This document shows, piece by piece, positions 43,370 to 58,395 of a DNA stretch of 64,000 bases. Position numbers and translations under genes: made by a program. The DNA comes from Cryobacterium melibiosiphilum (GTDB taxonomy: Bacteria > Actinomycetota > Actinomycetes > Actinomycetales > Microbacteriaceae), in contig NZ_QZVS01000095.1 in the NCBI RefSeq assembly GCF_003602235.1, positions 62,356-126,355 on the forward strand. The letters run 5' to 3'. The notes under the pieces are model-generated. The model did no database searches. It was not told where the DNA came from and was given only the letters and a program-made list of their open reading frames with translations. The first letter of the stretch is position 1; the number at the start of each line of letters is the position of its first letter.

Positions 43370-44506
43370 ATGGCAAGCATTCCGGCAACCTGGATGCGCG
43401 GGGGAACCAGCAAGTGCTGGGTCTTCGAACGGGCAGACCTACAGGTCGCGGGCAAGACCCTCGATGAGGTGTTACTGCGTCTTTTCGGCAGTCCCGACGA
43501 ACGGCAGGTGGACGGTATTGGCGGCGGCACGTCCACGACGAGCAAGGCCGTCATTCTCTCCGTCTCTGCGAACCCCGACGTCGACGTCGACTACACCTTC
43601 GCTCAGGTGGGCACTGCTGAGAACACGGTCGACTGGGGCAGTAATTGCGGTAACTGCTCCGCCGTCGTCGGACCCTACGCGATCGAACGCGGCTGGGTGA
43701 CCGCGCAGAACGGTACCACCGCGGTGCGCACCCTCAATACCAACACCAACCAACTGATTCTGCAGCGGGTGCCGACGCCGGATGGCGAGGTCGAACGCAC
43801 CGGCTCGCAGATGATCCCCGGTGTGCCCTTTCCGAGCATGCCGGTCGGGCTCGGTTTCTTCAACCCGGCCGGCAAGACCACCGGGCGGCTGTTCCCCACC
43901 GGTCATCCGGTCGACGAACTGACCTTCGACGGCAGCCCGGTGCGGGTCACCCTGATCGATGCCGGCGCCCCGGTGGTGATCATCGACGCCGCCGAGATCG
44001 GCCTCGGCGGGCTCGACGATCCGGCGGCCATCGACGCCGACTCCGTTCTGCTGGCCGGCCTCGAGCGATTGCGCCGCGATGCCGCCGTACGCATGGGCTT
44101 GGCCGCCACGACGGATGCCGCGGCGCGGGCCATTCCCAAGGTTGCCCTCGTGGCCCGCACACGGGCCGGTGACGATGCCGACTTCGCCGTCAGCATGCTC
44201 TCCATGGGGAGGCTGCATCCGGCGCTCGCGATCACCGGCAGCGTCGCCCTCACCATGGCTGCTCACGAAGCCGGCACCATCGTGCGGGAACTGAGCCGGG
44301 AACTGAGCCGGGAACTCGTCGGCGCCGGTGCCGGTGGTTCGACCGGGCGGACGGCGCCACGCACCGACTCACAGCTCACCATGCGCACCCCGGCCGGGCT
44401 GGTGGAGACCTTCTACGAGGATGTCGATGGCATCCCCGTCGTGGGGGCCGTGCGCAGCGCGCGTCGACTGGCCAACGCCGAGCTACTGCTGCCGGAAGTC
44501 TGGTGA
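43370..44506 (+). CDS. PrpF-family protein (aconitate/methylaconitate isomerase-like)
   Basis: 378 residues. MRGGTSKCWVF near the start and NCGNCSAVVGPYAIERGW (Cys at about residue 106) are the PrpF/DUF453 catalytic segments of this diaminopimelate-epimerase-like fold. SMGRLHPALAITGSVAL and the tail PAGLVETFYEDVDG also match. Known family members isomerise 2-methylaconitate, 4-oxalomesaconate or related tricarboxylates. AAGGA is 7 nt before the ATG. An insertion with SRELSREL repeats lies near residue 310. The ABC genes that follow probably import its substrate. Confidence 0.88.
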   Translation: MASIPATWMRGGTSKCWVFERADLQVAGKTLDEVLLRLFGSPDERQVDGIGGGTSTTSKAVILSVSANPDVDVDYTFAQVGTAENTVDWGSNCGNCSAVVGPYAIERGWVTAQNGTTAVRTLNTNTNQLILQRVPTPDGEVERTGSQMIPGVPFPSMPVGLGFFNPAGKTTGRLFPTGHPVDELTFDGSPVRVTLIDAGAPVVIIDAAEIGLGGLDDPAAIDADSVLLAGLERLRRDAAVRMGLAATTDAAARAIPKVALVARTRAGDDADFAVSMLSMGRLHPALAITGSVALTMAAHEAGTIVRELSRELSRELVGAGAGGSTGRTAPRTDSQLTMRTPAGLVETFYEDVDGIPVVGAVRSARRLANAELLLPEVW

Positions 44507-44648
44507 CCGCGCCGCTCCGAGTCGCACAGACTAGTCAGAAAGCCGCTCATATTGCCTATACAACCTGAGTCTTCAGTCACAGCGCCAGGTCACCGATACA
44601 CGCACCACAATCACACGCACCAGTTCACACGTAACAAAGGAGTTGCAC

Positions 44649-45764
44649 ATGGAAGTACACATCGAGGATCTGCGCCTGGCTTACAACGGGGTCCCGGCGA
44701 TTCGGGACCTCAGCCTCACCATCGGTGACGGCGAGTCGATCGTTCTGCTGGGGCAATCCGGCTGTGGCAAGACCAGCACCATGCGGTGCGTCGCCGGGCT
44801 CGAGGAGCCCACAGGAGGCAGCATCCGCATTGGTGACCGAGCCGTGTTCGACGCCGCCGCGAACATCAATATTCCCTCCCACAAACGCAATGTGGGAATG
44901 GTCTTCCAGTCCTACGCGGTCTGGCCGCACAAAACCGTGCTCGAAAACGTCGTCTTTCCACTGCGCATGAAGAAAGTCGGTCGCCGGGAGGCCCGGGCCG
45001 AGGGACTCAAGACGCTGGAGCTGGTCGGCCTGGGTCACCTCGCCGATCGAGGTGCCAGCCTGCTCAGCGGCGGTCAGATGCAGCGCGTCGCACTCGCCCG
45101 CAGCATGGCCATGAAGCCGAGCGTGCTCATGCTCGACGAGCCGCTGTCCAACCTCGACGCCCGATTGCGTGACGATCTGCGCGTGGAACTTCGGCGCATC
45201 CAGGTTGAACAGGGCCTGACGAGCCTCTACGTCACGCACGACCAGCAGGAGGCGCTCGCGCTCGCTGATCGCATCGCCATCATGCGCGACGGTGTCATCG
45301 CGCAGCTCGGCACCCCGCAGCAGATCTATTCCACCCCGGCTTCGGCCGCCATCGCCTCGTTTCTCGGGGTCACCAACGTCTTCCCGGTTACCGCCACTCA
45401 CTCCGCCAACCGGGTCACGCTCACCGAGCACCCGCTCGAGCTCGCGGTGGACGACCCGATCGAGTATCCCGAATCGAGTGCCTGCATTCGACCGGACGAC
45501 GTCGATGTGCGTCCGCGCGAGACTCGCATCGGCGAGCGCAACCGTTTCGGAGGCGAGGTGACGGTCGCCGTATTCCAGGGTGCCAGCATCCGCTACCAGG
45601 TCAAGCTCGCCAACGGGCCCGTGATCGACGCGATCTGCCCGCAGAACGCCCATGGAGTCCTGGCCGTCGGGACCGCCGTCGACGTGAGCATCGACCCGGC
45701 CAGCATCATGGTCCTGCCCAACGAGGTCCCCGAGGTCCGCGCCAGCGAACGGGTCGCCGCATGA
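44649..45764 (+). CDS. ABC importer ATPase (FbpC/PotA-like)
   Basis: 371 residues. Walker A GQSGCGKTS, Q-loop VFQSYAVWPH, signature LLSGGQMQRVALARS, Walker B VLMLDEPLSNLDARLR, and a C-terminal TOBE-like domain (VTVAVFQGASIRYQVKLANG). This is the iron/thiamine/polyamine-type ATPase. AAGGAG is 7 nt upstream of the ATG. It follows prpF by 142 bp and overlaps the permease gene by 4 nt. Confidence 0.93.
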   Translation: MEVHIEDLRLAYNGVPAIRDLSLTIGDGESIVLLGQSGCGKTSTMRCVAGLEEPTGGSIRIGDRAVFDAAANINIPSHKRNVGMVFQSYAVWPHKTVLENVVFPLRMKKVGRREARAEGLKTLELVGLGHLADRGASLLSGGQMQRVALARSMAMKPSVLMLDEPLSNLDARLRDDLRVELRRIQVEQGLTSLYVTHDQQEALALADRIAIMRDGVIAQLGTPQQIYSTPASAAIASFLGVTNVFPVTATHSANRVTLTEHPLELAVDDPIEYPESSACIRPDDVDVRPRETRIGERNRFGGEVTVAVFQGASIRYQVKLANGPVIDAICPQNAHGVLAVGTAVDVSIDPASIMVLPNEVPEVRASERVAA

Positions 45765-47524
45765 GCATCACGCTCGACCGCCCGCCCGTTGACAATGCCC
45801 CGCCGCCCGCACCCAGGCCCACCGTGACACCGCGGCGACGGATGCGGATCGGTCGCTTCGTGGTGAGCGGCCCGCTGCTGCTCCTGGTCGGTTTTCTCGT
45901 GCTCGTCCCCGTGGGCTTCGTCGTGCTCGCGGCCTTCAGCACCTCGGTGCCCCGGCCGGGAAACATCGATTTCGCCCTGACCCTGGAGAATTTCCGCACC
46001 CTCGCCGATCCGAGCGTGATGAAGGCAACGGGCAACTCGCTGCTCATTGCGTCGCTCGCCACCCTCCTTGCGCTGGTCATCGGCGGCTTTCTCGCCTTCA
46101 TCACGGCGAGGTCGAACGTTCCGTTCCGTGCGTTCATCTACGCCATCGGGCTGATGCCGTTGTTCCTGCCGTCGTATGTCGGCGCCCTCGCCTGGGCGAT
46201 CCTCGGCAGCCCCTCGGCGGGCCTGCTCAACGTGGCGCTGCGCGATCTTGGGCTGGCTGCCGTCGTCGACGTGTACTCATTCGGCGGCGTGGTCATGGTG
46301 ATGGCGATCTTCTATGCGCCCTATGCCTTTCTGATGATCCACAGCGCCATGTCCATGATGAACCCCGACCTCGAAGATGCGGCCGGCGTGCACGGTGGCT
46401 CGATGGCCCAGACCCTCAAGAACGTCACTTTCCCGCTCGCCCTGCCCGCAATCCTCGGCTCAGGCCTGCTCATCTTCATCCTCGTGCTGGAGAACTTTCC
46501 GGTAGCGCAGGTGCTGGCCACCCCGGCCGGCATCGACACGCTGCCGACCTACATCTACCGGGTCATGATGGCCACGCCGGCTCGGGGTAACGACGCGGCC
46601 ACCGTCGCGATCGTGCTCGTTGCCTTCGTCTTGTTGCTCACGTCGCTGCAGCGCCGCTACCTTGCCAAACGCTCGTACACGACCGTGACCGGCAAGGGCA
46701 TGAAGGCCCGCCGGGTCGACCTGGGCCGGGCTCAGTGGCCCGCGGTCGTGTTCGCCGGCGGGTATTTTCTGCTTTCGGTCGTGCTTCCCCTGCTCGCCCT
46801 GCTCCTGACCGCGGGCCGCGTCTCGCCGTACATGTCCTCGTTCCGTGACCTGGCGGCGCCCGGCGCGCTCGACTTCTCGGTTTTCGGCGAGATCCTCTCC
46901 TCCGCGTCGTTCTTCGGCGTTGCCGGTAACAGCATCTTCGTCTCCGTCCTGGCGGCGGCCCTCGGCACCGCGCTGGCCTTTGCCGTCGCGTATGTCATCA
47001 ACCGCACGCGGGCCCGCGGCCGGGCGCTGCTCGAGGGAATCTCCATGGTTCCGCTCGCGGTGCCGCACATCGTGCTCGGCATCGGACTGCTCTGGACCTG
47101 GCTCATCATGCCGATTCCGCTCTACGGCACCATCTGGGTGCTGGTGGTCGCGTTCCTCGTCGTGCAGATGCCGCAGGGGCTGCGCAGCGTCAGCGCGTCG
47201 ATCCAGGCCACCCACCGTGACCTGGAGGACAGTGCCGTGATGCTGGGTGCCCGCCGAGCAAAGGCAATCGCGTTCGTGACGCTGCCGCTCATGAAGGTGA
47301 CACTCGCGTCGTCGTTCCTGCTGCTGCTCATGCTCAGCATGCGCGAACTGACCGTGCCGCTGTTCCTGTACACGACCGACACCAAAATTCTCTCGATAGA
47401 GATTTTCGACCTCTTCGAGAACGGCGGAGCGGCCCAGGAAGCCGCCGCCATGAGCGTCATCTACTGCGTGATCATGTTCATCGTCTCCTACCTGCCGCAG
47501 CGTTTCGGCAACCAGAAGCACTGA
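45761..47524 (+). CDS. ABC importer permease, two fused membrane domains (FbpB-like)
   Basis: 587 residues and about 12 membrane segments in two halves, each with an EAA loop: LEDAAGVHGGSMAQTLKNVTFPLALP and LEDSAVMLGARRAKAIAFVTLPLM. This is the FbpB/SfuB layout in which one chain forms the whole pore. Following the ATPase and before the binding protein, it completes the importer. Confidence 0.93.
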   Translation: MSITLDRPPVDNAPPPAPRPTVTPRRRMRIGRFVVSGPLLLLVGFLVLVPVGFVVLAAFSTSVPRPGNIDFALTLENFRTLADPSVMKATGNSLLIASLATLLALVIGGFLAFITARSNVPFRAFIYAIGLMPLFLPSYVGALAWAILGSPSAGLLNVALRDLGLAAVVDVYSFGGVVMVMAIFYAPYAFLMIHSAMSMMNPDLEDAAGVHGGSMAQTLKNVTFPLALPAILGSGLLIFILVLENFPVAQVLATPAGIDTLPTYIYRVMMATPARGNDAATVAIVLVAFVLLLTSLQRRYLAKRSYTTVTGKGMKARRVDLGRAQWPAVVFAGGYFLLSVVLPLLALLLTAGRVSPYMSSFRDLAAPGALDFSVFGEILSSASFFGVAGNSIFVSVLAAALGTALAFAVAYVINRTRARGRALLEGISMVPLAVPHIVLGIGLLWTWLIMPIPLYGTIWVLVVAFLVVQMPQGLRSVSASIQATHRDLEDSAVMLGARRAKAIAFVTLPLMKVTLASSFLLLLMLSMRELTVPLFLYTTDTKILSIEIFDLFENGGAAQEAAAMSVIYCVIMFIVSYLPQRFGNQKH

Positions 47525-47592
47525 CCATGACACCCGATCATGATCACCCCACCCAGACTTCCGGCGTCGCCGGGACGGAAAGAAGGATCTCC

Positions 47593-48684
47593 ATGAAAAA
47601 ATCGCGTATTGCGTACTCAGCACTGGCGCTGGCTACCGTACTCGGACTCACGGCCTGCGGAGCCGGCACCGACGGTGCCGGCTCGGCCGCCGGCCCCACC
47701 CGCGATGTGTCCGACGGCCTCACGATCAACGGCGAACTCATCGCTGATGCCGCCCTCATGGAGGCGGCGGCCGGCGGCACCGTCGTGATGTACACCGGGG
47801 CCAGCCCCGAGTCCGAGCAGGCGGTGCTCGACCAGTTCACGGCCGAAACCGGTATCGCCGCTGAGATGACCCGGATGGCTCCCAACAAGCTCTCCGAACG
47901 GGTCATCAGCGAGAACGCGGTCGACAAGCTCAGCGCCGAGATCATTCGCACGGCCGACAAGATGATGGCCGAGGAATTCGTCGAGCAGGGGGTGTTCGTG
48001 CCCTACGAAACTCCGTTCCAGCAGAATCTCGCATCCGTCGACGGGATCGTGCAGGAGGGCAACGGATACATCACGCACGCCTACGGCACCTACGGCATCG
48101 CGTACAACACTCAACTCGTTGATCCGGCGGATGCCCCGGGTTCGTGGGCAGAGCTGGCCGACGGTACCTGGAAGAACAAGTTCGGGCTCGTCTATGCGGG
48201 TTCCGGCGGCGGCAACACCAGCCTCGCGGCCTTCCAGATCCGCAACTTCGGTGAGGACTACCTGGCCGATCTCGACGCGTTGGAGCCGCGCATCTTCGAC
48301 TCCATGTCGACGCAACTCGATGCCCTCGCTCGCGGTGAGATCGAGGTCACCCAGGTGTCGTTCCAGGGAGCCTTCGCGTCAAAGCTTGCGGGCGCACCGA
48401 TCGAGGTCATCGTGCCCGACGAGGGACTGAACGGGGTCGCCTACGGAATGGGGATCACTCCTGCCGGACTCGAGAACCCGGCCGCCCAGGTCTTCTACAA
48501 CTGGACCATGTCGCAGGCGGGGCAGGCCCTTCTCGCGGAGCAGTCTTACGCTCCGGCGCGTACCGACCTCGGCATCGAGAGCGAAGGTGCCGACGAAATG
48601 CAGGTCTACGAGGGCCCCGACTCAACCGACCTGGGTCTCGCCGCCGTCGATGCCTGGAAGCGCATCTTCAGCTACGCAGGTTAG
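47593..48684 (+). CDS. ABC importer substrate-binding lipoprotein
   Basis: 363 residues with lipobox LGLTACG. The mature start VVMYTGASPESEQAVLDQFTAETGI is the Fbp/SBP family 1 pattern. The paired tyrosines that bind iron in FbpA are not seen, and VYAGSGGGNTSLAAF resembles anion-binding loops, so an organic acid or phosphonate is a better guess than ferric iron. AAGGA is 7 nt before the chosen ATG; a longer frame from 47527 lacks a signal sequence at its start. Confidence 0.88.
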   Translation: MKKSRIAYSALALATVLGLTACGAGTDGAGSAAGPTRDVSDGLTINGELIADAALMEAAAGGTVVMYTGASPESEQAVLDQFTAETGIAAEMTRMAPNKLSERVISENAVDKLSAEIIRTADKMMAEEFVEQGVFVPYETPFQQNLASVDGIVQEGNGYITHAYGTYGIAYNTQLVDPADAPGSWAELADGTWKNKFGLVYAGSGGGNTSLAAFQIRNFGEDYLADLDALEPRIFDSMSTQLDALARGEIEVTQVSFQGAFASKLAGAPIEVIVPDEGLNGVAYGMGITPAGLENPAAQVFYNWTMSQAGQALLAEQSYAPARTDLGIESEGADEMQVYEGPDSTDLGLAAVDAWKRIFSYAG

Positions 48685-48723
48685 GCGCGTCGGTGCCGGG
48701 CGGCTCGCGCCGACCGGTACCGT

Positions 48724-49221
48724 CTAGGCGGCAGGGCCTGAGAGAGGGACGCCGGACTCCGAATCGGAGCCGGCGTCTTTCGCGGGTTCGGCGCCCACGC
48801 GATTGGTGTTCAGCAGCTCGGTGATCGATCGCAGGGTTTCTGGTGAGACGTCGCCGAGCATGCGGGCGGCGAAGCTCACGACACGTTGAACCCGCACGCT
48901 CTTGACGAATTCGAGTTGGGCATCCACTCGTTCGGGCAGGTCGTCGTCGGATCCGAGCATGTACTCCGCGGGGATGCGGAAGAACTCGGCGATGCCGGTC
49001 AGCAGCGCCGGGTCGGTGACGAGCGGCCCGTCACCGGTGATCATGTAGGCCCAGCGGGCCCGGGAGAGGGTCAGGCCGCGCTCGTTGAGCCCGGCTTCGA
49101 TCTGTCGAAAGGTGTAGGGAGTATTCCCCTCGGCGACGACGACATCGAGCAGCAGGTTGAGCTTGCGCGCCAACTCGAGTTGCGGGGTGACGTCCGACGA
49201 GCTCACGTCTGGCGCGGTCAC
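48724..49221 (-). CDS. XRE-like helix-turn-helix protein of the ImmA/IrrE operon
   Basis: 165 residues from a GTG that overlaps the stop of the membrane-protein gene (GTGA). A weak HTH is visible: LARKLNLLLDVV, PYTFRQIEAGLNERGLTLSRARWAYM, then VTDPALLTGIAEFFRIPAEYML, the layout of EspR-like actinobacterial regulators. The C-terminal half (DLPERVDAQLEFVKSVRVQR) is helical and may dimerise. It is the last gene of the operon and a likely target or partner of the metalloprotease. Confidence 0.75.
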   Translation of the reverse strand: MTAPDVSSSDVTPQLELARKLNLLLDVVVAEGNTPYTFRQIEAGLNERGLTLSRARWAYMITGDGPLVTDPALLTGIAEFFRIPAEYMLGSDDDLPERVDAQLEFVKSVRVQRVVSFAARMLGDVSPETLRSITELLNTNRVGAEPAKDAGSDSESGVPLSGPAA

Positions 49222-50231
49222 CGCGCCGACCCGACCAGGGGAACCGGTACGGATGCCCGGGGCTGCGTGCGCCGTTCGGCCTCGTCGATCAGGGCTCGCT
49301 CGACCGGTGTCACGGCGATATCGGGATGAAGCAGCAGGCTGTCGCGAATCTCGACGTGCCGCCGATACAGGTGGACTCCGGGCTCGCGCACCGTGATCAG
49401 GCGCATCGGTCGCAGGTGCCGCTCGATGCTGAGCTCGGGCGTTCGCTCGAGCAGGCGTTGCCACAACGGGGTGATGCGCCAGAGCAGTCTGCGGTCGTGC
49501 CAGTCCTTGGCGGCGGCGGCGAGGGCATCCGCTGCCGCGGTCAGGCCGAGGCCCAGGACGAGGCTGATCGGGGAGCCGAGCAGGGTCAGCGTGTAGGCGG
49601 TTCGCGCCCAGCCGACCAGCAGGTAGTCCGGGTAGAGAACGGCGAGTACGGCACTCGTCAGGCTAATGAGCGCATAGGTGAAAACCCCGAGGCAGGCCAG
49701 CAGCACCAATCCCAGCGAGACCAGCGTGACCGGGCGGCGCTGGCGGCGCAGGTCGGTGACGCAGGCGGCGCCGAAGGACACCGCGAAGATGCCCATGGCG
49801 ATCCAGGTCGTGGCCGCGTAGGCGGTGAAATCCCAGCGAGGGATGAACGACGCGGAGATGTCGTCGGTGATTCGCCAGTCGCTGCCGAAGAACAGGATCG
49901 CCTGGGCTGCAACGATCGCCGCGGTGATGAGCACCGTGGCGCGGGTGCGTGCTCGGGTGAGGCCGCGGGGCGACATGGCCTGCTGCACGATGACGTCGAG
50001 CAGGGCGATGGCCACGATGGTCAGCGCGTGGAAGATGAAATAGGTCACGTTGCCGTTGCCGAGCAGCGCATCGACGGGCCGGTACACCGGTTGGGGCATC
50101 AGGGTCATGGTCACCGCGAAGACCACCAGGAACAGCAGGAGGGGGCGGCGGTGGCCGCGAATGGCCGAGGGGACGCACACGGCGGCGGCGATCCAGAAGA
50201 CGGCCGAGAGCGTGAAAAGAATGGTCTGCAC
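49218..50231 (-). CDS. Seven-helix membrane protein (MAB_1171c-like) of the ImmA/IrrE operon
   Basis: 337 residues. About seven membrane segments fill the first ~220 residues, and the last ~110 are soluble and basic (WHDRRLLWRITPLWQRLLER, then TPVERALIDEAERRTQ). GTG start, placed immediately after the TAA of the protease gene. This matches the DUF6545 / MAB_1171c-type proteins that in many Actinobacteria sit beside ImmA/IrrE and HTH genes. Their role is not established; a sensor or small-signal exporter is possible. Confidence 0.75.
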   Translation of the reverse strand: MQTILFTLSAVFWIAAAVCVPSAIRGHRRPLLLFLVVFAVTMTLMPQPVYRPVDALLGNGNVTYFIFHALTIVAIALLDVIVQQAMSPRGLTRARTRATVLITAAIVAAQAILFFGSDWRITDDISASFIPRWDFTAYAATTWIAMGIFAVSFGAACVTDLRRQRRPVTLVSLGLVLLACLGVFTYALISLTSAVLAVLYPDYLLVGWARTAYTLTLLGSPISLVLGLGLTAAADALAAAAKDWHDRRLLWRITPLWQRLLERTPELSIERHLRPMRLITVREPGVHLYRRHVEIRDSLLLHPDIAVTPVERALIDEAERRTQPRASVPVPLVGSAR

Positions 50232-50726
50232 TTAGAGAACGCGTCCGAATCCGGTAGGGGTGCCGTGGGCCGCGTCGGGCCCATCGTGCAGCATGATGAG
50301 GGCCAAACGGTCACCGATCGCCTCGGCCAGGGCCTCCTGCTCATCGGTGAAGCCGCTTCGGGCCAGCGCGAAAGCGATCGCGTCGAGGGGGATCAGCGGT
50401 GCCAGACGGGCGATACGCTCCACCGAGATTCGCTCCTTCTTGTGGCCGAGAATCATGTGGCCGAACTCGTGGTTGATGAACTGCTGGCGATGAACCGGCG
50501 AGGTGGTGGGTGCCAGATGGATGCGCTCGAAATTCTCACCGGCCACTTCGATCCAGAGGCCGCAGACACCGGCTTCGAGCATTCGGGCGGATGCGTTCTG
50601 CACGACGATCTTTTTCCCCCGCACCGATTCCATGTGTTGGTGCAACCGCTCAGCCGTCAACGGTCGGGGTAGCCCGAGCTCGGTGACCATCAACTGCGCC
50701 TGTTTCTGGCGTGACTCGTAACCCAT
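50232..50726 (-). CDS. ImmA/IrrE-family zinc metallopeptidase
   Basis: 164 residues. The zincin motif HEFGHMILGH (about residues 87-96) is that of ImmA/IrrE peptidases, which cleave XRE-type repressors such as ImmR or DdrO. The third metal ligand may be in LAEAIGDRLAL. It starts ATG GGT at 50726 with a GGGGG box upstream. First gene of the operon 50726-48724, directly opposite the 50865 gene across a control region rich in palindromes. Confidence 0.9.
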   Translation of the reverse strand: MGYESRQKQAQLMVTELGLPRPLTAERLHQHMESVRGKKIVVQNASARMLEAGVCGLWIEVAGENFERIHLAPTTSPVHRQQFINHEFGHMILGHKKERISVERIARLAPLIPLDAIAFALARSGFTDEQEALAEAIGDRLALIMLHDGPDAAHGTPTGFGRVL

Positions 50727-50794
50727 TCGATACCCCCTATTTGCCCGCTCAGCCTACCCCCGTCGCGAGCCGGCCAGGGCGGAATACGGCCCGG

Positions 50795-50838
50795 GTACCC
50801 TGGCGCAGCCCCCGGACAGGGTACGATAGACATGTCTA
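50795..50838. promoter_or_regulatory. Divergent control region with two palindromes
   Basis: GTACCCTG (50795-50802) and CAGGGTAC (50817-50824) form an inverted repeat with centres 22 bp apart. A perfect palindrome TAGACATGTCTA (50827-50838) follows. The second arm and the palindrome cover a TACGAT -10 (50822-50827) and the probable start of transcription of the rightward gene, so binding there should repress it. Confidence 0.6.
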
Positions 50839-50864
50839 ACGCGGATCTATGGGGAGGATCAGTT

Positions 50865-51557
50865 GTGACATCGCTCGATAGCGGCGGCAACGTGGGGGCT
50901 CTGATACCGGTGCCTGGCACTCGGTATGACCGTCCAGCCATCGAGCGGGCGCTGCGTTCCGCGTGGAATTTGCGCCGGCGCCCCCGTCACGGGGGCGCCG
51001 AGACGCAGACGCCTCGAGCGGCGGTCCCCGACAGTGCGCGGGCCGATCAAATTGCGGCGCGGTGGCTGCGCGGACTCATTCCTGCCGCGCCCGATCAGAA
51101 CACGATCGTCACCTTCGACAGCTGGCACCACCCGGGTGCGGCCACCGAAATCGCCGTCGACGCTCGGGGCATCCTCGCCGTTGCCAACCTGCCCGTCGTT
51201 CACACGGCCCTGCGCATCATCAATTCCGGGCATAGCGTCGTCGTGCAGGTGAGGACCGGGCAGACCGTGCGGGTGTGGGTGTTCAATCGCAAGAGCGTGC
51301 AGGCCATCGACGCTGCAACCCTCGAACAGAATCACCTGCGCAATGGTCTGGCGCTCGACCGGGGCGATGCATCTCGGCCCACCGGCGTCCGGTTCGCGAC
51401 GGGCTGGATCGTGACCGGCGAACCGGGCGGTGCCCGACGCGCGAAACCGGCCCGGAGCGAGAAACCGGCCCGGAGCGCGAAACCGGCCCGGAGCGCACGG
51501 GCGGCCCGGCAGATGGCCGGTCGCAGAAAGCCGGCACGGCTGCCGAAATCAGCATAG
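50865..51557 (+). CDS. Uncharacterised protein with basic repeat tail
   Basis: About 230 residues. The GTG at 50865 is chosen because GGGGAGG precedes it by 8 nt; an ATG at 50832 lies inside the palindrome. The middle part (VTFDSWHHPGAATEIAVDARG ... HSVVVQVRTGQTVRVWVFNR) looks like a compact beta-rich domain. The C-terminal ~45 residues are Lys/Arg/Ala-rich with KPARSEKPARSAKPARSA repeats and could bind DNA or RNA. No family is recognised. Divergent transcription from the ImmA/IrrE operon suggests co-regulation. Confidence 0.7.
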   Translation: MTSLDSGGNVGALIPVPGTRYDRPAIERALRSAWNLRRRPRHGGAETQTPRAAVPDSARADQIAARWLRGLIPAAPDQNTIVTFDSWHHPGAATEIAVDARGILAVANLPVVHTALRIINSGHSVVVQVRTGQTVRVWVFNRKSVQAIDAATLEQNHLRNGLALDRGDASRPTGVRFATGWIVTGEPGGARRAKPARSEKPARSAKPARSARAARQMAGRRKPARLPKSA

Positions 51558-51614
51558 GGTTTCTAAGAACAGCTCTTTTTTGCGCCAAACGGGCGAGGAG
51601 CAGCAGGGAGATTG

Positions 51615-52193
51615 ATGCTTTCATTCACCAGTCCCACGCAGCGGCTCACCCTGCGTACGCTCGGCCTGCTGGCCGCGGGAACCCTCGCGGCCCTCGTCGT
51701 CGGCACCGGAGGCGCTGCCGAGCCGGCGGTCGCCGCGAACAGCAGCCATCCCATCGGCTCCTGGGAGAAATATCCGTGGTCGTCGACGCTGTACCGGGTC
51801 GGTACCGAGTTCTCCGCGACCGCCCAGACCTACGCACAATGGGAAGCGGCTGGTTTCCCCGGATATGAAACCGAACTCGTTCTGGGCAGCAGCGTCTGGA
51901 ACTACGTCACCAACTCGGACGAAATCATCGTCGGCCCCATGACGAGCGACAACCACCCGCAGTTCGACCTGCCCCACCACGTGACACCGAGCGAGTGGGT
52001 CGCGATCGGCTCGCCGATGCCCACCAGCCAGCACCGCGTCGGATTCATCAAGACGGCCTCGAGCGACAATGTCTATGAGTGTGCCGGATATGAATCCACC
52101 TACCACCCGCGTTTGTTGAGCTACGACAGCTGGGCGCGATCGGGAACGCCGACGCCGGTTGTCGTCGCGTCGATCACGGCGCGTTGCCCCTGA
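51615..52193 (+). CDS. Secreted protein with WxxxG/Y repeats
   Basis: 192 residues. A twin-basic-poor signal peptide TLGLLAAGTLAALVVGTGGA ends near AVAA (about residue 36), predicting Sec export. The mature part has three similar segments, FSATAQTYAQWEAAGFPGYE, HHVTPSEWVAIGSPMP and RLLSYDSWARSGTPTP, matching short Trp/Gly repeats in exported Microbacteriaceae proteins. GGGAG precedes the ATG by about 5 nt. Function unknown. Confidence 0.7.
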   Translation: MLSFTSPTQRLTLRTLGLLAAGTLAALVVGTGGAAEPAVAANSSHPIGSWEKYPWSSTLYRVGTEFSATAQTYAQWEAAGFPGYETELVLGSSVWNYVTNSDEIIVGPMTSDNHPQFDLPHHVTPSEWVAIGSPMPTSQHRVGFIKTASSDNVYECAGYESTYHPRLLSYDSWARSGTPTPVVVASITARCP

Positions 52194-52219
52194 CACGCCC
52201 CTGACCGCGCGCCCCTGAC
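52186..52219 (+). repeat. Repeat of GCCCCTGAC including a stop codon
   Basis: Three copies (52186, 52197, 52211). The first contains the TGA of the secreted-protein gene. Confidence 0.85.
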
Positions 52220-52315
52220 CGGGCCGCCCCACCGTGCGCTGCACCCGGGGCGGCCGGGGCGTCGCAGTGTGTGACGCCCCGATTCGCGGCCCAGTCGTCG
52301 GTCCGGCGCGCCGGA

Positions 52316-52321
52316 TACGCT
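52316..52321 (+). promoter_or_regulatory. -10 element TACGCT of metH, leaderless
   Basis: TACGCT is 6 nt before the metH ATG, leaving no room for a 5' leader or a cobalamin riboswitch. Confidence 0.55.
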
Positions 52322-52327
52322 GGGCGG

Positions 52328-55300
52328 ATGAGCGAAACACCCCGCACGGAAACACCCCGCACGGCTGGAACGGTCCCCTTTCACCCCGGCCCGGCACATC
52401 CCGGCCAGGCGCAGGCCCCGCTGCCGGCTCGCTCTGCGGCCCTGCTGCACGCACTGCGCACGACCGTCGTCATCGCCGACGGCGCCATGGGCACCATGCT
52501 GCAGGAACACAACCCCACCCTCGACGACTACCAGCAGCTCGAGGGCTGCAACGAGATTCTCAACGTGAGCCGCCCCGACATCATCGCGGCCATCCACGAT
52601 GTCTACCTCGAAACCGGTATCGACGCCATCGAGACCAATACCTTCGGCGCGAACTGGTCCAACCTCTCCGACTACGGCATCGAAGACCGCATCGAAGAAC
52701 TCGCCCGGATCGGTGCCGAGATCGCCCGCGCCAGCGCCGAGGCCTTCGAGGCCCGCGACGGCCGCGTGCGCTGGGTGCTCGGGTCGATGGGCCCCGGAAC
52801 CAAGCTGCCGAGCCTCGGGCACACCACCTACGCGCACCTCAAGGCGACGTTCGCCGAGCAGGCCCTCGGCCTGATCCGCGGCGGCGCCGACGCGTTCCTC
52901 ATCGAAACCTCGCAGGACCTGCTGCAGACCAAGAGCGCGGTGAACGGATGCAAACAGGCCGTCGCCGAGAGCGGCATCCGTCTGCCCATTTTCGTCGAAG
53001 TGACGGTCGAGACCACCGGAACCATGCTGATGGGCAGTGAGATCGGCGCGGCGCTCACCGCGCTCGAACCGCTCGGAATCGACGCGATCGGCCTCAACTG
53101 CGCAACCGGGCCGACTGAGATGAGCGAGCACCTGCGGCACCTGTCGAAGTACTCGCGGGTGCCGGTGATCTGCATGCCCAACGCGGGGCTGCCGCAGCTG
53201 ACCAAGTCGGGCGCGAGCTATCCGCTGACCCCCGACCAGCTCGCCACCGCGCACGAGCAGTTCGTGAAGGAATTCGGGCTGGGCCTCGTGGGCGGATGCT
53301 GCGGCACCACCCCCGCACACCTGACCGCCGTGGTCGAACGGTTGCGGGGGACCCCCGTGAAGGAGCGCGTGCTCGAAAGAGACCCCGGAGTCGCGAGCCT
53401 GTACCAGCACGTCAGTTTCGACCAGGACAGTGCCTTTCTCGCGATCGGGGAGCGTACCAACGCCAACGGCTCGCGCGCTTTCCGCGATGCGATGCTCGCC
53501 GAGAACTGGGACGACTGCGTCGACATCGCCCGCAGCCAGGTACGTGACGGCGCCCACCTGCTCGACGTCTGCATCGACTACGTCGGCCGCGACGGCGTCG
53601 CCGACATGAAGCAGGTCGTCTCCCGGCTCGCGAGCGCGTCGACGCTGCCGCTCGTCGTCGATTCCACCGAACCCGCGGTGCTGCAGGCCGGCATGGAACT
53701 GATCGGCGGCCGCCCCGTCGTCAACTCGGTCAACTTCGAAGACGGCGAGAGCGCCACCTCACGGTTCGGCCGCATCATGCCGCTGGTGAAGGAGCACGGC
53801 GCCGCCGTGATCGCCCTGACTATCGACGAGGAGGGCCAGGCCCGCACCGCCGAGCACAAAGTGCGCATCGCGACCCGGCTCGTCGACACGCTCGTCAACG
53901 TCTGGGGGATGCGGGTCGAGGACATCATCGTCGACGCCCTCACCTTTCCGATCGCGACCGGTCAGGAGGAAACCCGCCGCGACGGCATCGAGACCATCGA
54001 GGCGATTCGCCAGATCAAAGCCAAGTATCCCGGCATCCACACCACCCTCGGCGTGTCGAACGTGTCGTTCGGGTTGAACCCGGCGGCCCGTTCGGTGCTC
54101 AACTCGGTGTTCCTGCACGAGGCAACCGAGGCCGGCCTCGACTCGGCGATCGTGAACTCGGCCAAGATCGTGCCGCTCGCCTCGGTGCCAGACGATCGCC
54201 GCAAGGTCGCCCTCGACCTGGTCTGGGACCGCCGCGAGTACGACGCCGAGGGCACCCTCACCTACGACCCGCTCGTCGCGCTGCTCGACCTGTTCGCCGG
54301 CGTCGATTCCGCCGCCCTGAAGGACGAACGCGCCGCCGAACTCGCCGCGCTGCCGGTGGGGGAACGCCTGGAGCGTCGCATCATCGACGGTGAGGCCAAG
54401 GGCCTCGAGGCCGACCTCGACCTCGCCCGCGCCGGCGGACTGAGCGCCCTCGACATCGTCAACGTGCACCTGCTCGTGGGTATGCAGGTCGTCGGCGCCC
54501 GGTTCGGCAGCGGCGAGATGCAGCTGCCGTTCGTGCTGCAGTCTGCCGAGGTCATGAAGGCCGCCGTCGCCCTGCTCGAACCCCACATGGAGAAATCCGA
54601 GGCGGCCGGCAAGGGCACGATCGTGCTCGGCACCGTGCGGGGCGACGTGCACGACATCGGCAAGAACCTCGTCGACATCATCCTCACCAACAACGGCTAC
54701 GACGTGATCAATATCGGCATCAAACAGCCGATCGCGGAGTTCATCCGGGTCGCCGAGGAGCAGAACGCCGACGTCATCGGCATGAGTGGGCTGCTCGTGA
54801 AGTCGACCGTGGTGATGAAGGAGAACCTGCTTGAACTCGAGTCGCGCGGGCTCGCTCTGAAATGGCCGATTCTGCTCGGCGGCGCTGCGTTGACGAGGTC
54901 GTATGTCGAAGACGACCTCGACAGCGTCTTCGGCGGCCAGGTGCGCTACGCCCGCGACGCCTTCGAGGGCCTCGCCCTGATGGAGCCGCTCGTCGCGATC
55001 GCCCGCGGCGCCGACCCCGCTTCCGTGGGCCTGCCAGCGCTGAAGAAGCGCATCCACAAGAAGAGCCTGCTCACCCTGACCGAACCCGAGGAGATGCCGA
55101 CCCGCTCGGAGGTCGCCCGGGACAACACGATTCCGGTGCCGCCGTTCTGGGGCACCCGTATCGTCAAAGGCGTGGCGCTGGCCGAGTTCTCGGCCTTCCT
55201 CGACGAACGCGCCACGTTCATGGGGCAGTGGGGCCTGAAGCCCAGCCGCGCCGAAGATGGCGCGAGCTACCAGGAACTCGTCGACACGGTCGGTCGGCCC

Positions 55301-55990
55301 AGGCTGCGCTACTGGCTCGACCGCATTCTCGGGGAGGGGATGCTCGACGCATCCGTCGCCTACGGCTACTTTCCCGCCGTCGCCGAGGGCAACGACCTCG
55401 TTGTGCTGCACCACGGCGACGACCCCACCGGCCTCGTCGGCCCGGCCGGCCTGCTCGCGCCCGACGGCGGCTCGGGCGGCGTCGTCGGCAGCGACCGGCT
55501 GCGGTTCAACTTTCCCCGGCAGCGCCGCGACAAGCATCTCTGCCTGGCCGACTTCGTGCGGCCGAGAGAGAGCGCGCAGACGGATGTTGTCGCGCTGCAA
55601 CTCGTCACGGCCGGCTCCCACGTCGACTCGGTCACCGCGAAGCTGTTCGCCGATAACTCATACCGCGACTACATGGAACTCAACGGGCTCACCATGCAGC
55701 TCACCGAGGCCCTCGCCGAGTACTGGCACTCCCGCATCCGCGCCGAATTCGGGGTCGGCGGTGAAGACCCGACCGACGTCGCCGGCATGTTCAAGCTCGA
55801 ATACCGCGGCGCGCGCTTCTCGCTGGGGTACCCGGCCTGCCCCGAGATGGAGGACCGCCGCAAGGTCGTCGAGCTGCTGAAGCCCGAGCGCATGGGCGTC
55901 GTGCTGTCGGAGGAGCTACAGCTGCACCCGGAGCAGTCGACGGATGCCTTCGTGTTTCACCACCCGGAGGCCAAGTACTTCTCGGTGTAG
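52328..55990 (+). CDS. metH: Cobalamin-dependent methionine synthase
   Basis: 1220 residues, full length. Domains in order: homocysteine-binding barrel (about 35-340) with zinc Cys residues in LNCATG and GGCCGTTPAH; pterin-binding barrel (about 365-625, GERTNANGSRAF and LGVSNVSFGLNPAARS); cobalamin cap and B12-binding Rossmann domain with the axial His in VHDIGKNLVD (about 772); and the S-adenosylmethionine reactivation domain (about 930-1220, RAEFGVGGEDPTD ... YRGARFSLGYPACPE). It methylates homocysteine using methyltetrahydrofolate. A short ETPRTETPRT repeat lies at the N-terminus. Confidence 0.97.
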   Translation: MSETPRTETPRTAGTVPFHPGPAHPGQAQAPLPARSAALLHALRTTVVIADGAMGTMLQEHNPTLDDYQQLEGCNEILNVSRPDIIAAIHDVYLETGIDAIETNTFGANWSNLSDYGIEDRIEELARIGAEIARASAEAFEARDGRVRWVLGSMGPGTKLPSLGHTTYAHLKATFAEQALGLIRGGADAFLIETSQDLLQTKSAVNGCKQAVAESGIRLPIFVEVTVETTGTMLMGSEIGAALTALEPLGIDAIGLNCATGPTEMSEHLRHLSKYSRVPVICMPNAGLPQLTKSGASYPLTPDQLATAHEQFVKEFGLGLVGGCCGTTPAHLTAVVERLRGTPVKERVLERDPGVASLYQHVSFDQDSAFLAIGERTNANGSRAFRDAMLAENWDDCVDIARSQVRDGAHLLDVCIDYVGRDGVADMKQVVSRLASASTLPLVVDSTEPAVLQAGMELIGGRPVVNSVNFEDGESATSRFGRIMPLVKEHGAAVIALTIDEEGQARTAEHKVRIATRLVDTLVNVWGMRVEDIIVDALTFPIATGQEETRRDGIETIEAIRQIKAKYPGIHTTLGVSNVSFGLNPAARSVLNSVFLHEATEAGLDSAIVNSAKIVPLASVPDDRRKVALDLVWDRREYDAEGTLTYDPLVALLDLFAGVDSAALKDERAAELAALPVGERLERRIIDGEAKGLEADLDLARAGGLSALDIVNVHLLVGMQVVGARFGSGEMQLPFVLQSAEVMKAAVALLEPHMEKSEAAGKGTIVLGTVRGDVHDIGKNLVDIILTNNGYDVINIGIKQPIAEFIRVAEEQNADVIGMSGLLVKSTVVMKENLLELESRGLALKWPILLGGAALTRSYVEDDLDSVFGGQVRYARDAFEGLALMEPLVAIARGADPASVGLPALKKRIHKKSLLTLTEPEEMPTRSEVARDNTIPVPPFWGTRIVKGVALAEFSAFLDERATFMGQWGLKPSRAEDGASYQELVDTVGRPRLRYWLDRILGEGMLDASVAYGYFPAVAEGNDLVVLHHGDDPTGLVGPAGLLAPDGGSGGVVGSDRLRFNFPRQRRDKHLCLADFVRPRESAQTDVVALQLVTAGSHVDSVTAKLFADNSYRDYMELNGLTMQLTEALAEYWHSRIRAEFGVGGEDPTDVAGMFKLEYRGARFSLGYPACPEMEDRRKVVELLKPERMGVVLSEELQLHPEQSTDAFVFHHPEAKYFSV

Positions 55991-56102
55991 CTCCTTGATC
56001 TGTTGATTCTCGCGCGACCTTCACGACGCACGCCTGATCGTTGCACTCACCTCGCCGCTCGCGAGCTGGATATAGCCGTGCGAACGTGGGTTCGCGGGGC
56101 TT

Positions 56103-56492
56103 CTAGGCGCCTTGCTGGTCGACAGGGGGGTGTTCGGCGACGCAGAAGAGGTTACCTTCCGGATCGGCAAGGGTGGTCCACTCCACGTGCGGGTACTCGT
56201 CCAGGACATCCCAGTGGTAGACGGCACCGAGACGGATCAGACGTTCGACCTCCGCCTGTCGCGACCCCCACGGGACCGTCAGGTCCAGGTGAGAGGCCTG
56301 ATGTGCGGGGCGGGGAGCCGTCTCGGGCTGGAAAAACATCGCGAATCCACTCGGGCCGACAGGGGGCAGGTAGACGCTGTTGCCACCGGGAGACGGCAGG
56401 GCGCCGGTGACGGCCGCCCAAAAATCGGCAAGCGTGGTTGGATTCTGAGCCTCGAGGTTGATCGCACCGAGGGTGATCTGATGAGTCGTCAT
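56103..56492 (-). CDS. VOC-family (glyoxalase/bleomycin resistance-like) protein
   Basis: 129 residues. Typical: ITLGAINLEAQNPTTLADFWAAVTG at the start, HLDLTVPWGSRQAEVERLIRLGA in the second module and TLADPEGNLFCVAEHP at the end, with metal-ligand-like His and Glu. The dioxygenase or lyase activity is unknown. MTTHQITLG is chosen from the TATCGT -10. Confidence 0.9.
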   Translation of the reverse strand: MTTHQITLGAINLEAQNPTTLADFWAAVTGALPSPGGNSVYLPPVGPSGFAMFFQPETAPRPAHQASHLDLTVPWGSRQAEVERLIRLGAVYHWDVLDEYPHVEWTTLADPEGNLFCVAEHPPVDQQGA

Positions 56493-56499
56493 TGGAGCC

Positions 56500-56505
56500 A
56501 CGATA
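56500..56505 (-). promoter_or_regulatory. -10 element TATCGT, leaderless
   Basis: TATCGT (minus strand) is 7 nt before the ATG at 56492. Confidence 0.45.
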
Positions 56506-56826
56506 TCAAGGCCTCCACGGGGTTCACTGCGGGGTGAGAAACCACGGATGCTGAGGCCCGCCGACAGCGCGCACAGTTTTCCACAGGGTCGCGATGTGGC
56601 GAGTTATCCACAGGAAGCCCTGATCATGGGGCTTTTGTCGGAGGCGCTGTCGGAGGGAATGTCAGTGGTGGGTGAGAAAATTTCACTATGACAACCTTCC
56701 ACCGATGCCCTCCAAGCCAGCACCGCGCTCGTCGCCGCTGCTGTCGCCGCTGCTGTTGCCGCGGCGGTCGGCGGGCGGTTCTGTTGTGACGCAGATGGGG
56801 TTAGTGCCGCTCGCGATCTGGAGGGC

Positions 56827-57957
56827 ATGAGCGATGCCGAGCTGCTCACGGTCACGGACGCGATCTTCGCCGCGAAGCGGCAGGTCGAGGCCCTCGCGGC
56901 CCGGGCGGCCGGTGAGCTGGCCGACCGGTTCACGCACGACTCGGGCGCGCACGGCGTCGCGGCGAAAACCGGGTGCCGTAACGCGCGCGTGCTGCTGACC
57001 GACGTCGACCAGATCTCGATGGGCGAAGCCAGCCGGCTCTGCCGGGTCGGGTCGGCGACCCGGCCGCGGGTGAGCCTGCTCGGTGAACGGATGCCGCCCG
57101 AATACCCGCAGGTGGCCGCGGCCCTCGACGTGGACGGGATCGAACCCCGCGAAGAAGTGCTCGTCGGCCGCCGTTCATTGGTGCGCACGGTGCTGCCCAA
57201 CGGCATGAAACGCTACATTCTCGAGGCCGACCCGGTCTCGGCGGCGTTCTTCGACACCGCGATCGACGCCCTCGTCGGCGCCGAACTGCGTAAGCCCCGG
57301 TTCGAACCGACCGAGACCGCACCGTCCACCGATGAAGATGAATGCGGCGAACCACACCTGCAGCTGGCCGAGACGCGCACGATCCAGCAGATGTACTTCG
57401 ACGCGTTCGTCGAGATCGTGCGGCACGGCCTCAGCTGCACCCAAGGCCCCGGGCCGCTGAACCACACCACCGTCATCGTAAGGATGACCCTCCACTCCCT
57501 GCTCGACGGCCTCGGCGAGGCCCAACTCGACGGCATCGAACAGCCCATCAGCGCCGGAACCGCCCGCCGCATGGCCGCCGACGCCCACATCATCCCGATG
57601 GTCCTCGGCGGCGACAGCGAAGTGCTCGACTTCGGCGTCGGCCGACGCCTCTTCAGCCGCGCCCAGAAACTGGCCCTGGCCGAACGCGACGGCGGCTGCG
57701 CCACCCCCGGCTGCAACCGACCACCCAGCTACACCCAAGCCCACCATATTTTGTGGTGGAAAGCCCACGGCGGACCCACCGACCTCACAAACGGGGTCCT
57801 GCAGTGCGGACCCTGCCACCACCGCATTCACGAGGAGGGCTGGGACATCGTCGTCACACACAACGTGGTCTGGTTCATTCCGCCGACGAGCATCGATCCG
57901 AACCGCAGACCACGCCGCGGCGGACGACCACCCCTCCTCCAGCCGAAAGGACACTAG
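56827..57957 (+). CDS. DUF222/HNH endonuclease-like protein, N-terminus lost by frameshift
   Basis: 376 residues from an internal ATG. DUF222 fills the first ~270 residues. The HNH domain is intact: GCATPGCNRPPSYTQAHHIL, WWKAHGGPTDLTNGVLQC and CHHRIH. Upstream, the same frame codes for a typical DUF222 N-terminus (STDALQASTALVAAAVAAA ... SAARDLEG) back to 56692 but has no start codon; an ATG ACA ACC at 56688 is one base out of frame. The gene has therefore probably lost its start by a 1-nt indel, and the product may be shortened. An 11-codon ORF (56795) ends in ATGA at this start. These abundant paralogues have no proven role. Confidence 0.8.
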   Translation: MSDAELLTVTDAIFAAKRQVEALAARAAGELADRFTHDSGAHGVAAKTGCRNARVLLTDVDQISMGEASRLCRVGSATRPRVSLLGERMPPEYPQVAAALDVDGIEPREEVLVGRRSLVRTVLPNGMKRYILEADPVSAAFFDTAIDALVGAELRKPRFEPTETAPSTDEDECGEPHLQLAETRTIQQMYFDAFVEIVRHGLSCTQGPGPLNHTTVIVRMTLHSLLDGLGEAQLDGIEQPISAGTARRMAADAHIIPMVLGGDSEVLDFGVGRRLFSRAQKLALAERDGGCATPGCNRPPSYTQAHHILWWKAHGGPTDLTNGVLQCGPCHHRIHEEGWDIVVTHNVVWFIPPTSIDPNRRPRRGGRPPLLQPKGH

Positions 57958-57993
57958 CTGGTGCCGGTGGGCCTGCGTAGCGAACAGGTTGCT

Positions 57994-58395
57994 TCAGTTT
58001 CGCTTTACGGCGTTCGAGTTCGCGATCCCCCACACGAAGGACAGCGCGAGTAGCTGTGCAGTGGCAAGGCCCAGCAGCGGGGAGAAGAAGATCGTGGCGA
58101 GCACGAGTTCGATCACGGACAGGAACAGTGCGGCGGCGCCGACGGTTGCGAACCCCTGCCTGGCTAGGTCGCGGTCCCGTTCGTCACGATACTCGATGGC
58201 GTTGATACGGGTGATGTCGCGGGAGTTGGGGCGGCGCGCGTACAGCGCAATCCCGAGCCCCGTTATGCCGGGAATGAGCAGCAGAAGCGCGCCGAACCAA
58301 TTCTGAGTGAGAGCCGCGACAAGCGCTCCCGCGCAGAGCGTGCTGACTAAGACGAGGTTGGTGGTCGAGATGGGCGAGCGGTTACTTTTCTGCAA
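57994..58395 (-). CDS. Small membrane protein of the XRE pair
   Basis: About 133 residues from a TTG that overlaps the end of the XRE gene; the start is uncertain. Four membrane segments with a charged central loop RINAIEYRDERDRDLARQGF, in which the Asp-Glu-Arg-Asp-Arg stretch resembles the DUF2178-type proteins often paired with small XRE regulators. It is probably controlled by, or signals to, the regulator next to it. Confidence 0.65.
   Translation of the reverse strand: MQKSNRSPISTTNLVLVSTLCAGALVAALTQNWFGALLLLIPGITGLGIALYARRPNSRDITRINAIEYRDERDRDLARQGFATVGAAALFLSVIELVLATIFFSPLLGLATAQLLALSFVWGIANSNAVKRN

What the first reader, a model, noticed from the sequence alone, without database searches (positions are those of the whole stretch)
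48724..51557. ImmA/IrrE protease - membrane protein - HTH operon facing an unknown gene across a palindromic switch region
Seen: a coupled operon (stop/start contact at 50232/50231 and GTGA at 49221) encodes a HEFGH zinc peptidase, a seven-helix membrane protein and an XRE-like protein. Between it and the 50865 gene lie an 8-bp inverted repeat with 22-bp centres and a perfect 12-bp palindrome covering that gene's -10 and start region. Known: ImmA/IrrE peptidases cleave XRE repressors (ImmR, DdrO) to induce target genes. Inference: the membrane protein receives an outside signal, the peptidase cuts the HTH repressor, and the 50865 gene is released. The triad is common in Actinobacteria, but to my knowledge no circuit is described.
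Basis: partly seen in the sequence, partly recalled or inferred. Interest (0 to 1): 0.75.

Follow-up and report, generated by a model that had tools for sequence, protein, structure and literature searches.

The report
Protease-triad operator guards structured G-loop RNA
In the cold-loving bacterium Cryobacterium, a three-gene module (a protease, a membrane protein and a DNA-binding protein) sits beside a private DNA switch that appears to control a folded RNA with runs of G in its loops, and only in some species a protein gene; the RNA might pair with a widespread small regulatory RNA.

Summary
Triad and 12-bp palindrome are real. One palindrome alone means little (39 perfect 12-bp palindromes in this window), but in Cryobacterium it is a dedicated operator: 40 of 41 genomes with all three triad genes carry TRGACATGTCYAA there, against 9 of 195 other Microbacteriaceae genomes; off-locus hits are at chance level. 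The site overlaps the proposed -10 of a promoter whose conserved product is not the 50865 protein but a structured RNA (50828 to about 51001): helices covary, the sense strand folds far better than the antisense, and it is rich in G tracts. The 50865 protein is intact in 9 of 41 loci; its first 48 codons lie on the RNA and have lowered synonymous divergence, while codons 76-195 evolve as a protein. Where the RNA lies downstream of the HTH gene (9 genomes), the exact operator is there too. Paralogous triads mostly carry sibling CATG-centred palindromes that follow the HTH tree. Best reading: the EspR-like protein represses the RNA; the ImmA/IrrE-type peptidase, perhaps signalled by the 7-TM protein, releases it. 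Pairing of the G tracts with 6C small RNA is a suggested, unproven function. No binding, cleavage or transcript data exist here.

The parts
50232..50726 (-). PEP: ImmA/IrrE-type zinc peptidase (PF06114), HEFGH
   Evidence: HExGH columns kept at >=98% over 41 sequences
49218..50231 (-). MP: seven-TM MAB_1171c-family membrane protein with DUF6545 part
48724..49221 (-). HTH: EspR-like DNA-binding protein, proposed repressor
   Evidence: PDB sequence match to EspR; AF2 model; Foldseek probability 1.00, best E 1.3e-3, none <=0.001
50827..50839 (+). Operator TAGACATGTCTAA (12-bp palindrome 50827-50838)
   Evidence: only site in the held 4.7-Mb genome; 40 of 41 triad genomes of the genus
50822..50827 (+). 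Proposed -10 (TACGAT) of the RNA promoter, overlapping the operator
   Evidence: same geometry, TANGAT, in the 17 group-A loci; consensus match by eye only
50828..51001 (+). Structured G-rich RNA; last strong hairpin 50976-51000; ends are not known
   Evidence: 42 pairs in the alignment, 22 with changes on both sides; sense -30.5 vs antisense -11.1 kcal/mol
50865..51557 (+). DIV: optional protein gene whose first ~48 codons overlap the RNA; predicted domain at residues 55-158
50751..50756 (-). Proposed -10 (TAGGCT) of the PEP-MP-HTH operon
   Evidence: present within 60 bp of PEP in 12 of 17 group-A loci; consensus match only

Best explanation
A one-locus proteolytic switch that guards an RNA. 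(1) The EspR-like HTH protein binds the palindrome overlapping the proposed -10 of the RNA promoter (inferred, about 0.8). (2) It thereby represses a structured RNA with G tracts (RNA as a conserved element: shown by comparison in group A, about 0.93; repression: inferred) and, where present, the DIV protein coded on the same strand and probably the same transcript. (3) The ImmA/IrrE-type peptidase cleaves or removes the HTH protein (inferred from family, about 0.6). (4) The 7-TM MAB_1171c protein passes a membrane or outside signal to the peptidase (inferred, about 0.45). (5) The released RNA shows G4-G6 tracts, many of them in loops, that pair with C-rich sRNA loops, first of all 6C RNA, acting as a decoy; in DIV-bearing species the first tract is also the likely ribosome-binding site of DIV, so 6C could control DIV (about 0.35-0.4).
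For: Operator dedicated to the locus: 40 of 41 genomes with all three genes versus 2 of 16 others in the genus, Fisher p 2e-10; one of those 2 (G236) has a triad split over contigs with the sites upstream of its peptidase, the other (G219) has its site elsewhere. 9 of 195 non-Cryobacterium Microbacteriaceae. The operator goes with the RNA: in 9 of 9 group-C loci the exact site is at the RNA promoter, 30-100 bp past the HTH stop, not upstream of PEP. Operator type follows HTH type: TTGAGCATGCTCAA in 18 of 28 paralogue loci in which HTH was found (L117 one base off), TAGGCATGTCCAG-like sites in 6, neither in 3; tree groups. A genome with DIV but no triad (G243) has no operator. RNA, group A: covariation 0.368 vs shuffled 0.200 +/- 0.012 (0 of 500), slid <=0.145; G-U 105 vs A-C 20 cells. 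G5+ runs: 25 of 26 group A and C RNAs have two or more versus about 1% of background windows. Lowered Ks over DIV codons 1-48. HExGH kept. 6C at E<=0.001 in 44 of 57 genus genomes; pairing to its loop after opening cost averages -11.4 versus -7.7 kcal/mol in shuffles. In M. abscessus the 6C homologue B11 represses eccB4, whose 5' UTR has a six-G tract that could bind its C-rich loops; either loop alone sufficed (PMC10470900, passages).
Against: No transcript, binding or cleavage data. RNAs of groups A, B and C do not align with one another; model R1 finds intact B and C loci only weakly (best E 0.008) and some of its 15 hits lie on the other side or strand, so one RNA family is not shown. Covariation was tested for A, B1 and 8 of 9 C loci, not for B2 and B3 (9 loci). 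Folding z-scores are poor for several A3 and B3 RNAs. The structure counted on A1 was derived from A1. The Ks contrast is small in some pairs (L068-L074: 0.17 vs 0.22). 6C pairing is beyond shuffles (1 of 20 or better) in only 16 of 41 RNAs, 2 of 9 in group C; the window RNA scores 2 of 20. Only 3 of the 44 6C matches pass the family cut-off. In group C the opposite strand looks weakly like 6C (32.2 bits, cut-off 47); in B1 the antisense fold is nearly as good (-52.1 vs -55.8). In the window strain the tracts are only G4, G5 and a paired G5. The signal is unknown.
Confidence: 0.58

Rival explanations
1. The switch controls the 50865 (DIV) protein, and the structured region is simply its regulated mRNA leader; DIV-less loci are decaying remnants.
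For: DIV codons 76-195 are under purifying selection (Ka/Ks 0.09-0.31 in eight close pairs); G-rich SD and start kept in 9 loci; DIV-like sequence also stands without a triad (G243).
Against: DIV intact in 9 of 41 triad loci; no tblastn hit in the 4 A1 and 24 group B and C loci, where operator and G-rich sequence persist. The start position reads AGG in 3 loci that keep the fold. DIV codons 1-48 show RNA-like constraint.
Confidence: 0.17
2. The functional RNA is on the opposite strand: a 6C-like sRNA with C-loops, at least in group C, and the operator-driven transcript is its cis-antisense antagonist or a by-product.
For: Group C minus strand: weak Rfam matches to 6C, ar14 and sX13 in the one group-C locus scanned at low threshold; a hairpin followed by a T-run in most and a TAGAAT upstream, by eye. 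The window's minus strand has a chance-level sX12 match at 50970-51015 (25.2 bits, cut-off 106).
Against: The sense strand folds better in the A and C alignments and G-U exceeds A-C; I noted no such promoter and T-run in A and B, by eye only; the operator sits at the start of the sense transcript; DIV is coded on the sense strand.
Confidence: 0.12
3. The triad is a type II toxin-antitoxin pair with a membrane partner; the palindrome only autoregulates the operon.
For: Such pairs are studied as toxin-antitoxin in Brucella (PMC10538038, search listing only); B-group peptidase promoters have two sites close by.
Against: In groups A and C the exact site lies at the RNA promoter, 96-168 bp upstream of PEP or 2.0-2.1 kb downstream of its start.
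Confidence: 0.06
4. The G tracts are ribosome or protein decoys rather than 6C partners.
For: G tracts resemble Shine-Dalgarno sequences; pairing with the 16S 3' end is beyond shuffles (1 of 20 or better) in 8 of 41 RNAs.
Against: Pairing to the (recalled) 16S 3' end is weaker and near shuffles on average: -6.2 versus -5.5 kcal/mol.
Confidence: 0.2

Closest known systems
ImmA/ImmR (ICEBs1 type, recalled) and TnSmu1 ImmRA (PMC10233336, abstract); IrrE/DdrO (PMC7907104, search listing)
   Same: Zn peptidase of the M78 family beside an HTH repressor; six of seven divergent genes of sister triads that I scanned are ArdC-like or primase-polymerase, as in mobile elements
   Different: The HTH protein is EspR-like; a 7-TM MAB_1171c protein is built in; the conserved target in Cryobacterium looks like an RNA
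EspR of Mycobacterium tuberculosis
   Same: Sequence (E 3.9e-9; 1.1e-9 with profile) and predicted fold
   Different: EspR is described as a nucleoid-associated protein (PMC3315491, search listing); here one site cluster per genome
6C RNA (RF01066, B11)
   Same: Hairpins with homopolymer loops in actinobacteria; group C resembles its mirror
   Different: Loops are G, not C; on the sense strand no Rfam match; 6C itself lies elsewhere in these genomes
sRNA antagonists such as the RoxS sponge (PMC8216469) and the CJnc190 antagonist (PMC8687705), both seen as search listings only
   Same: An RNA antagonising a C-rich sRNA (that detail is recalled)
   Different: Here the RNA would be gated by a peptidase-controlled repressor

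Membership tests
ImmA/IrrE (M78) peptidase | M78 profile match and HExxH zinc motif | tested here: met
   22.4 bits vs 22, barely over; motif columns kept at >=98% in 41 sequences
ImmA/ImmR-type switch | Peptidase cleaves the partner repressor | not testable with these tools
   needs biochemistry
ImmA/ImmR-type switch | Repressor gene next to peptidase, conserved palindrome at a neighbouring promoter | tested here: met
   binding itself not tested
MAB_1171c family (NF042915) | Score over curated cut-off | tested here: met
   102.2 vs 100 bits; 7 hydrophobic segments
EspR-like DNA-binding proteins | Sequence and fold similarity to EspR | tested here: met
   model confident to about residue 90, then pLDDT 55-61
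6C RNA (RF01066) | Covariance-model score over gathering threshold | tested here: not met
   no 6C match in window 44000-58000; best 32.2 vs 47, on the opposite strand of one group-C locus
RNA sponge of 6C | Base-pairs with and titrates 6C in vivo | not testable with these tools
   complementarity computed only
Type II toxin-antitoxin | Toxic partner neutralised by the other | not testable with these tools
   no assay

The most novel reading that the evidence does not exclude
A membrane-signalled, protease-released repressor whose sole regulon is a '6G' RNA: an anti-6C decoy that frees G-rich ribosome-binding sites genome-wide when the signal arrives, with a protein-coding gene riding on the decoy in one clade.
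Probability: 0.33. Interest if true: 0.87.

Novelty: new variant of a known kind. Interest (0 to 1): 0.7.

Why it matters
It gives the functionally blank MAB_1171c/ImmA/EspR-like triad a concrete, testable target and operator code, adds a structured RNA that matched no Rfam 15 family on its sense strand, and suggests a natural counterpart for 6C, an actinobacterial sRNA for which my paper searches listed no antagonist that I recognised. It is also a neat case of a coding gene overlapping an RNA element.

Tried and rejected
The 8-bp inverted repeat was dropped: neither arm occurs in the other 40 triad loci (8 of those have some other perfect 8-bp repeat at that spacing). The palindrome by itself was judged unremarkable. 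DIV function: AF2 model mean pLDDT 53.7, no PDB fold match at E<=0.001; no hits in Pfam, NCBIfam or PADLOC. Phage-defence reading: only capH at E 0.01, capP at 0.044 and a 2TM effector at 0.12. Known RNA family: none at gathering level in window 44000-58000 or in L095, L096, L099, L103; in 8 further loci only the opposite-strand matches of L127 at E<=1. A regulon elsewhere in the genome: 4 off-locus places in 57 genomes look like chance (6 hits of the control pattern). Structured RNA beside paralogue triads: alifold -10.6 sense, -7.7 antisense, shuffled columns -2.8 +/- 1.7 over 13 loci, modest, and the stretch runs into protein genes; not pursued. RNA outside Cryobacterium: model R1, built on group A, found 3 of 199 family genomes, all Cryobacterium, with strict filters. 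A 6C pairing test timed out after 20 RNAs and was redone for all 41 with another opening-energy method. Group labels A, B, C were made by eye. L102 was left out of alignment A2 because its RNA is shorter; it is counted.
Full report
What is there. On the minus strand, peptidase (50232-50726), seven-TM protein (49218-50231) and HTH protein (48724-49221) form a tight operon. The peptidase just passes PF06114; the membrane protein passes NF042915 (MAB_1171c) and PF20182. The HTH protein has no family hit but is EspR-like in sequence and predicted fold (Foldseek probability 1.00, best E 1.3e-3). The 22 named loci are all Cryobacterium; several are the same contigs as loci of the window's genus, which is therefore Cryobacterium.

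Conservation of the triad. Of 57 Cryobacterium genomes searched, 47 have some match to the membrane protein. In 41 loci, the window included, I find all three genes in the order peptidase, membrane protein, HTH (in L075 the peptidase looks frameshifted). A 42nd genome, G236, has the three split over two contigs; G219 has a membrane protein with a stop and no peptidase or HTH hit. A second kind, in the order HTH, peptidase, membrane protein, occurs in this genus and in other Microbacteriaceae. Among orthologues HTH is the most conserved protein and the membrane protein the least.

The operator. In 31 of 32 loci of groups A and B the core RGACATGTCY lies once or twice within 168 bp upstream of the peptidase; in all 9 group-C loci it lies instead 30-100 bp past the HTH stop, 2.0-2.1 kb from the peptidase start. 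Genome-wide, TRGACATGTCYAA is found in 42 of 57 Cryobacterium genomes: 40 of the 41 with all three genes and 2 of 16 others (Fisher 2e-10). Of those 2, G236 has it upstream of its peptidase on the split contig, and G219 has it elsewhere. The one miss (G205) has two sites one base off. Only 9 of 195 other Microbacteriaceae genomes have a match. In the window's own held genome it is the only site. Four off-locus places remain in 57 genomes, against 6 hits of the control pattern. So this is a dedicated, one-locus operator.

Who binds it. Sister triads carry sister palindromes. Of 34 paralogue loci examined, HTH was found in 28: 18 have TTGAGCATGCTCAA (among them loci of other genera), L117 has it with one change, 6 have TAGGCATGTCCAG-like repeats (among them the window genome's own second triad), and 3 (L114, L118, L119) have neither. 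The HTH tree of 31 sequences keeps the operator types together (two long branches, L114 and L118, are unsure). A genome with DIV but no triad (G243) has no operator, and G219 has a one-base variant before its DIV remnant. This points to the HTH protein; binding itself is untested.

What it controls. The site overlaps a -10-like hexamer, by eye, of a promoter firing away from the peptidase (groups A and B; not clear in L077) or onward from the end of the triad (group C). In group A (17 loci) the product is a structured RNA: 42 predicted pairs, 22 with compensating changes, 91.4% of cells paired, covariation 0.368 against 0.200 +/- 0.012 shuffled and at most 0.145 when slid. The sense strand folds at -30.5 against -11.1 kcal/mol antisense, shuffled columns -8.6 +/- 2.7; G-U cells 105, A-C cells 20. 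Groups B1 (6 loci) and C (8 of 9) give the same picture more weakly: covariation 0.203 against 0.160 +/- 0.013, and 0.112 against 0.098 +/- 0.006. In B1 the antisense fold is almost as good (-52.1 against -55.8); in C it is -74.1 against -88.6. B2 and B3 (9 loci) were not tested for covariation.

The G tracts. The RNAs of groups A, B and C do not align with one another, and a model of group A finds the others only weakly. What they share is the operator at the start and G tracts, many in loops: 95 runs of five or more G in 41 RNAs, 44.4 in dinucleotide shuffles, and 4 runs of five or more C. All 26 RNAs of groups A and C have at least one and 25 have two or more, against about 11-13% and 1% of background windows; in group B 14 of 15 have one and 3 of 15 two or more, against 10% and 0.7%. 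In group A some of these runs are paired in the last hairpin.

The 50865 gene. An intact DIV frame is found in 9 of 17 group-A loci, is cut short in one (L072), has AGG at the start position in three and gives no tblastn hit in the other four; nor is there one in the 24 group B and C loci. Across the genus DIV-like sequence occurs in 12 of 57 genomes. In eight close pairs, codons 1-48 show Ks 0.08-0.20 and Ka/Ks 0.35-0.97, while codons 76-195 show Ks 0.21-0.43 and Ka/Ks 0.09-0.31; the contrast is large in some pairs (0.09 vs 0.34) and small in others (0.17 vs 0.22); between the window and L064 or L083 Ks is 0.36-0.39 against 1.05-1.09. So the N-terminal part looks held by the RNA and the rest by the protein; the model agrees, with residues 1-54 mostly below pLDDT 50 and a domain at 55-158. 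What the domain does is unknown.

A possible partner. 6C RNA lies elsewhere in 44 of 57 genomes at E<=0.001, though only 3 pass the family cut-off. In 30 of 31 such loci read both loops hold UUCCCCCCAAU; L178 differs. B1 RNAs hold GGGGAACAGG, ten bases complementary to a 6C loop, in 4 of 6 loci; L072 holds UUGGGGGGAA. Allowing for opening, pairing averages -11.4 against -7.7 kcal/mol in shuffles, 16 of 41 RNAs at 1 of 20 or better (2 of 9 in group C; the window RNA 2 of 20); for the 16S end -6.2 against -5.5, 8 of 41. A cruder duplex test agrees in direction but few RNAs stand out singly. In print, the 6C homologue B11 of M. abscessus represses eccB4, whose 5' UTR has six Gs, and either C-rich loop alone sufficed (PMC10470900, passages); a C-rich loop is likewise needed in M. 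marinum (PMC12395582, passages). The decoy idea is thus reasonable but not shown. In the window's strain the tracts are short: G4, G5 and a paired G5.

Comparison. ImmA-type switches control mobile elements (TnSmu1, PMC10233336, abstract and outline), and of seven divergent genes of sister triads that I scanned, three are ArdC-like, three primase-polymerase and one an ArsR-type HTH. The window's triad looks like such a switch turned to a chromosomal RNA. MAB_1171c itself appears in one paper of the library: its knock-out made about half the biofilm (PMC8707978, passages). Searches for print on this circuit or an anti-6C RNA; I saw listings only, and nothing in them described it, but most subscription journals are not held.

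Verdict. Observation confirmed; interpretation partly right; the target looks like an RNA first and a protein second. Shown by comparison: triad, operator, its link to triad and RNA, the RNA and its strand in group A, DIV's double constraint. Inferred: binding, repression, cleavage, sensing, pairing with 6C.

Noticed in passing
L104-L108, L110, L112, L113, L115-L117, L120, L122, L211, L214-L216, L221, L222 (upstream of HTH): Paralogous triads (HTH-PEP-MP) with TTGAGCATGCTCAA operators (L117 one base off); of six divergent proteins of this kind scanned, three match ArdcN and three Prim-Pol, suggesting mobile-element switches.
   Followed up: partly
L109 (G000:C84:21400-36300) and L121, L209, L210, L212, L213: The window genome holds a second triad with a third operator type (TAGGCATGTCCAG-like); its target was not worked out.
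   Followed up: partly
L095-L103, about 2.1-2.3 kb after the PEP start: In group C the opposite strand reads like a 6C-type RNA with two C5-C6 loops, a T-run in most and a TAGAAT; both strands may be expressed.
   Followed up: partly
window 51441-51512 (DIV C-terminus): KPARS-like repeats extend DIV in this strain only, among the nine aligned orthologues.
   Followed up: no
window 51612-52193: A small, probably secreted protein follows DIV on the same strand; no family hit over cut-off and no tblastn hit in the 60 loci searched.
   Followed up: no
window 45761-48684: An ABC permease gene and a solute-binding protein gene (SBP_bac_6) sit beside the end of the HTH gene; no tblastn hit to either in the 60 loci searched.
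   Followed up: no
L066, L069, L076: Three species read AGG where DIV starts in their relatives while keeping the RNA fold: a natural experiment in loss of coding.
   Followed up: yes
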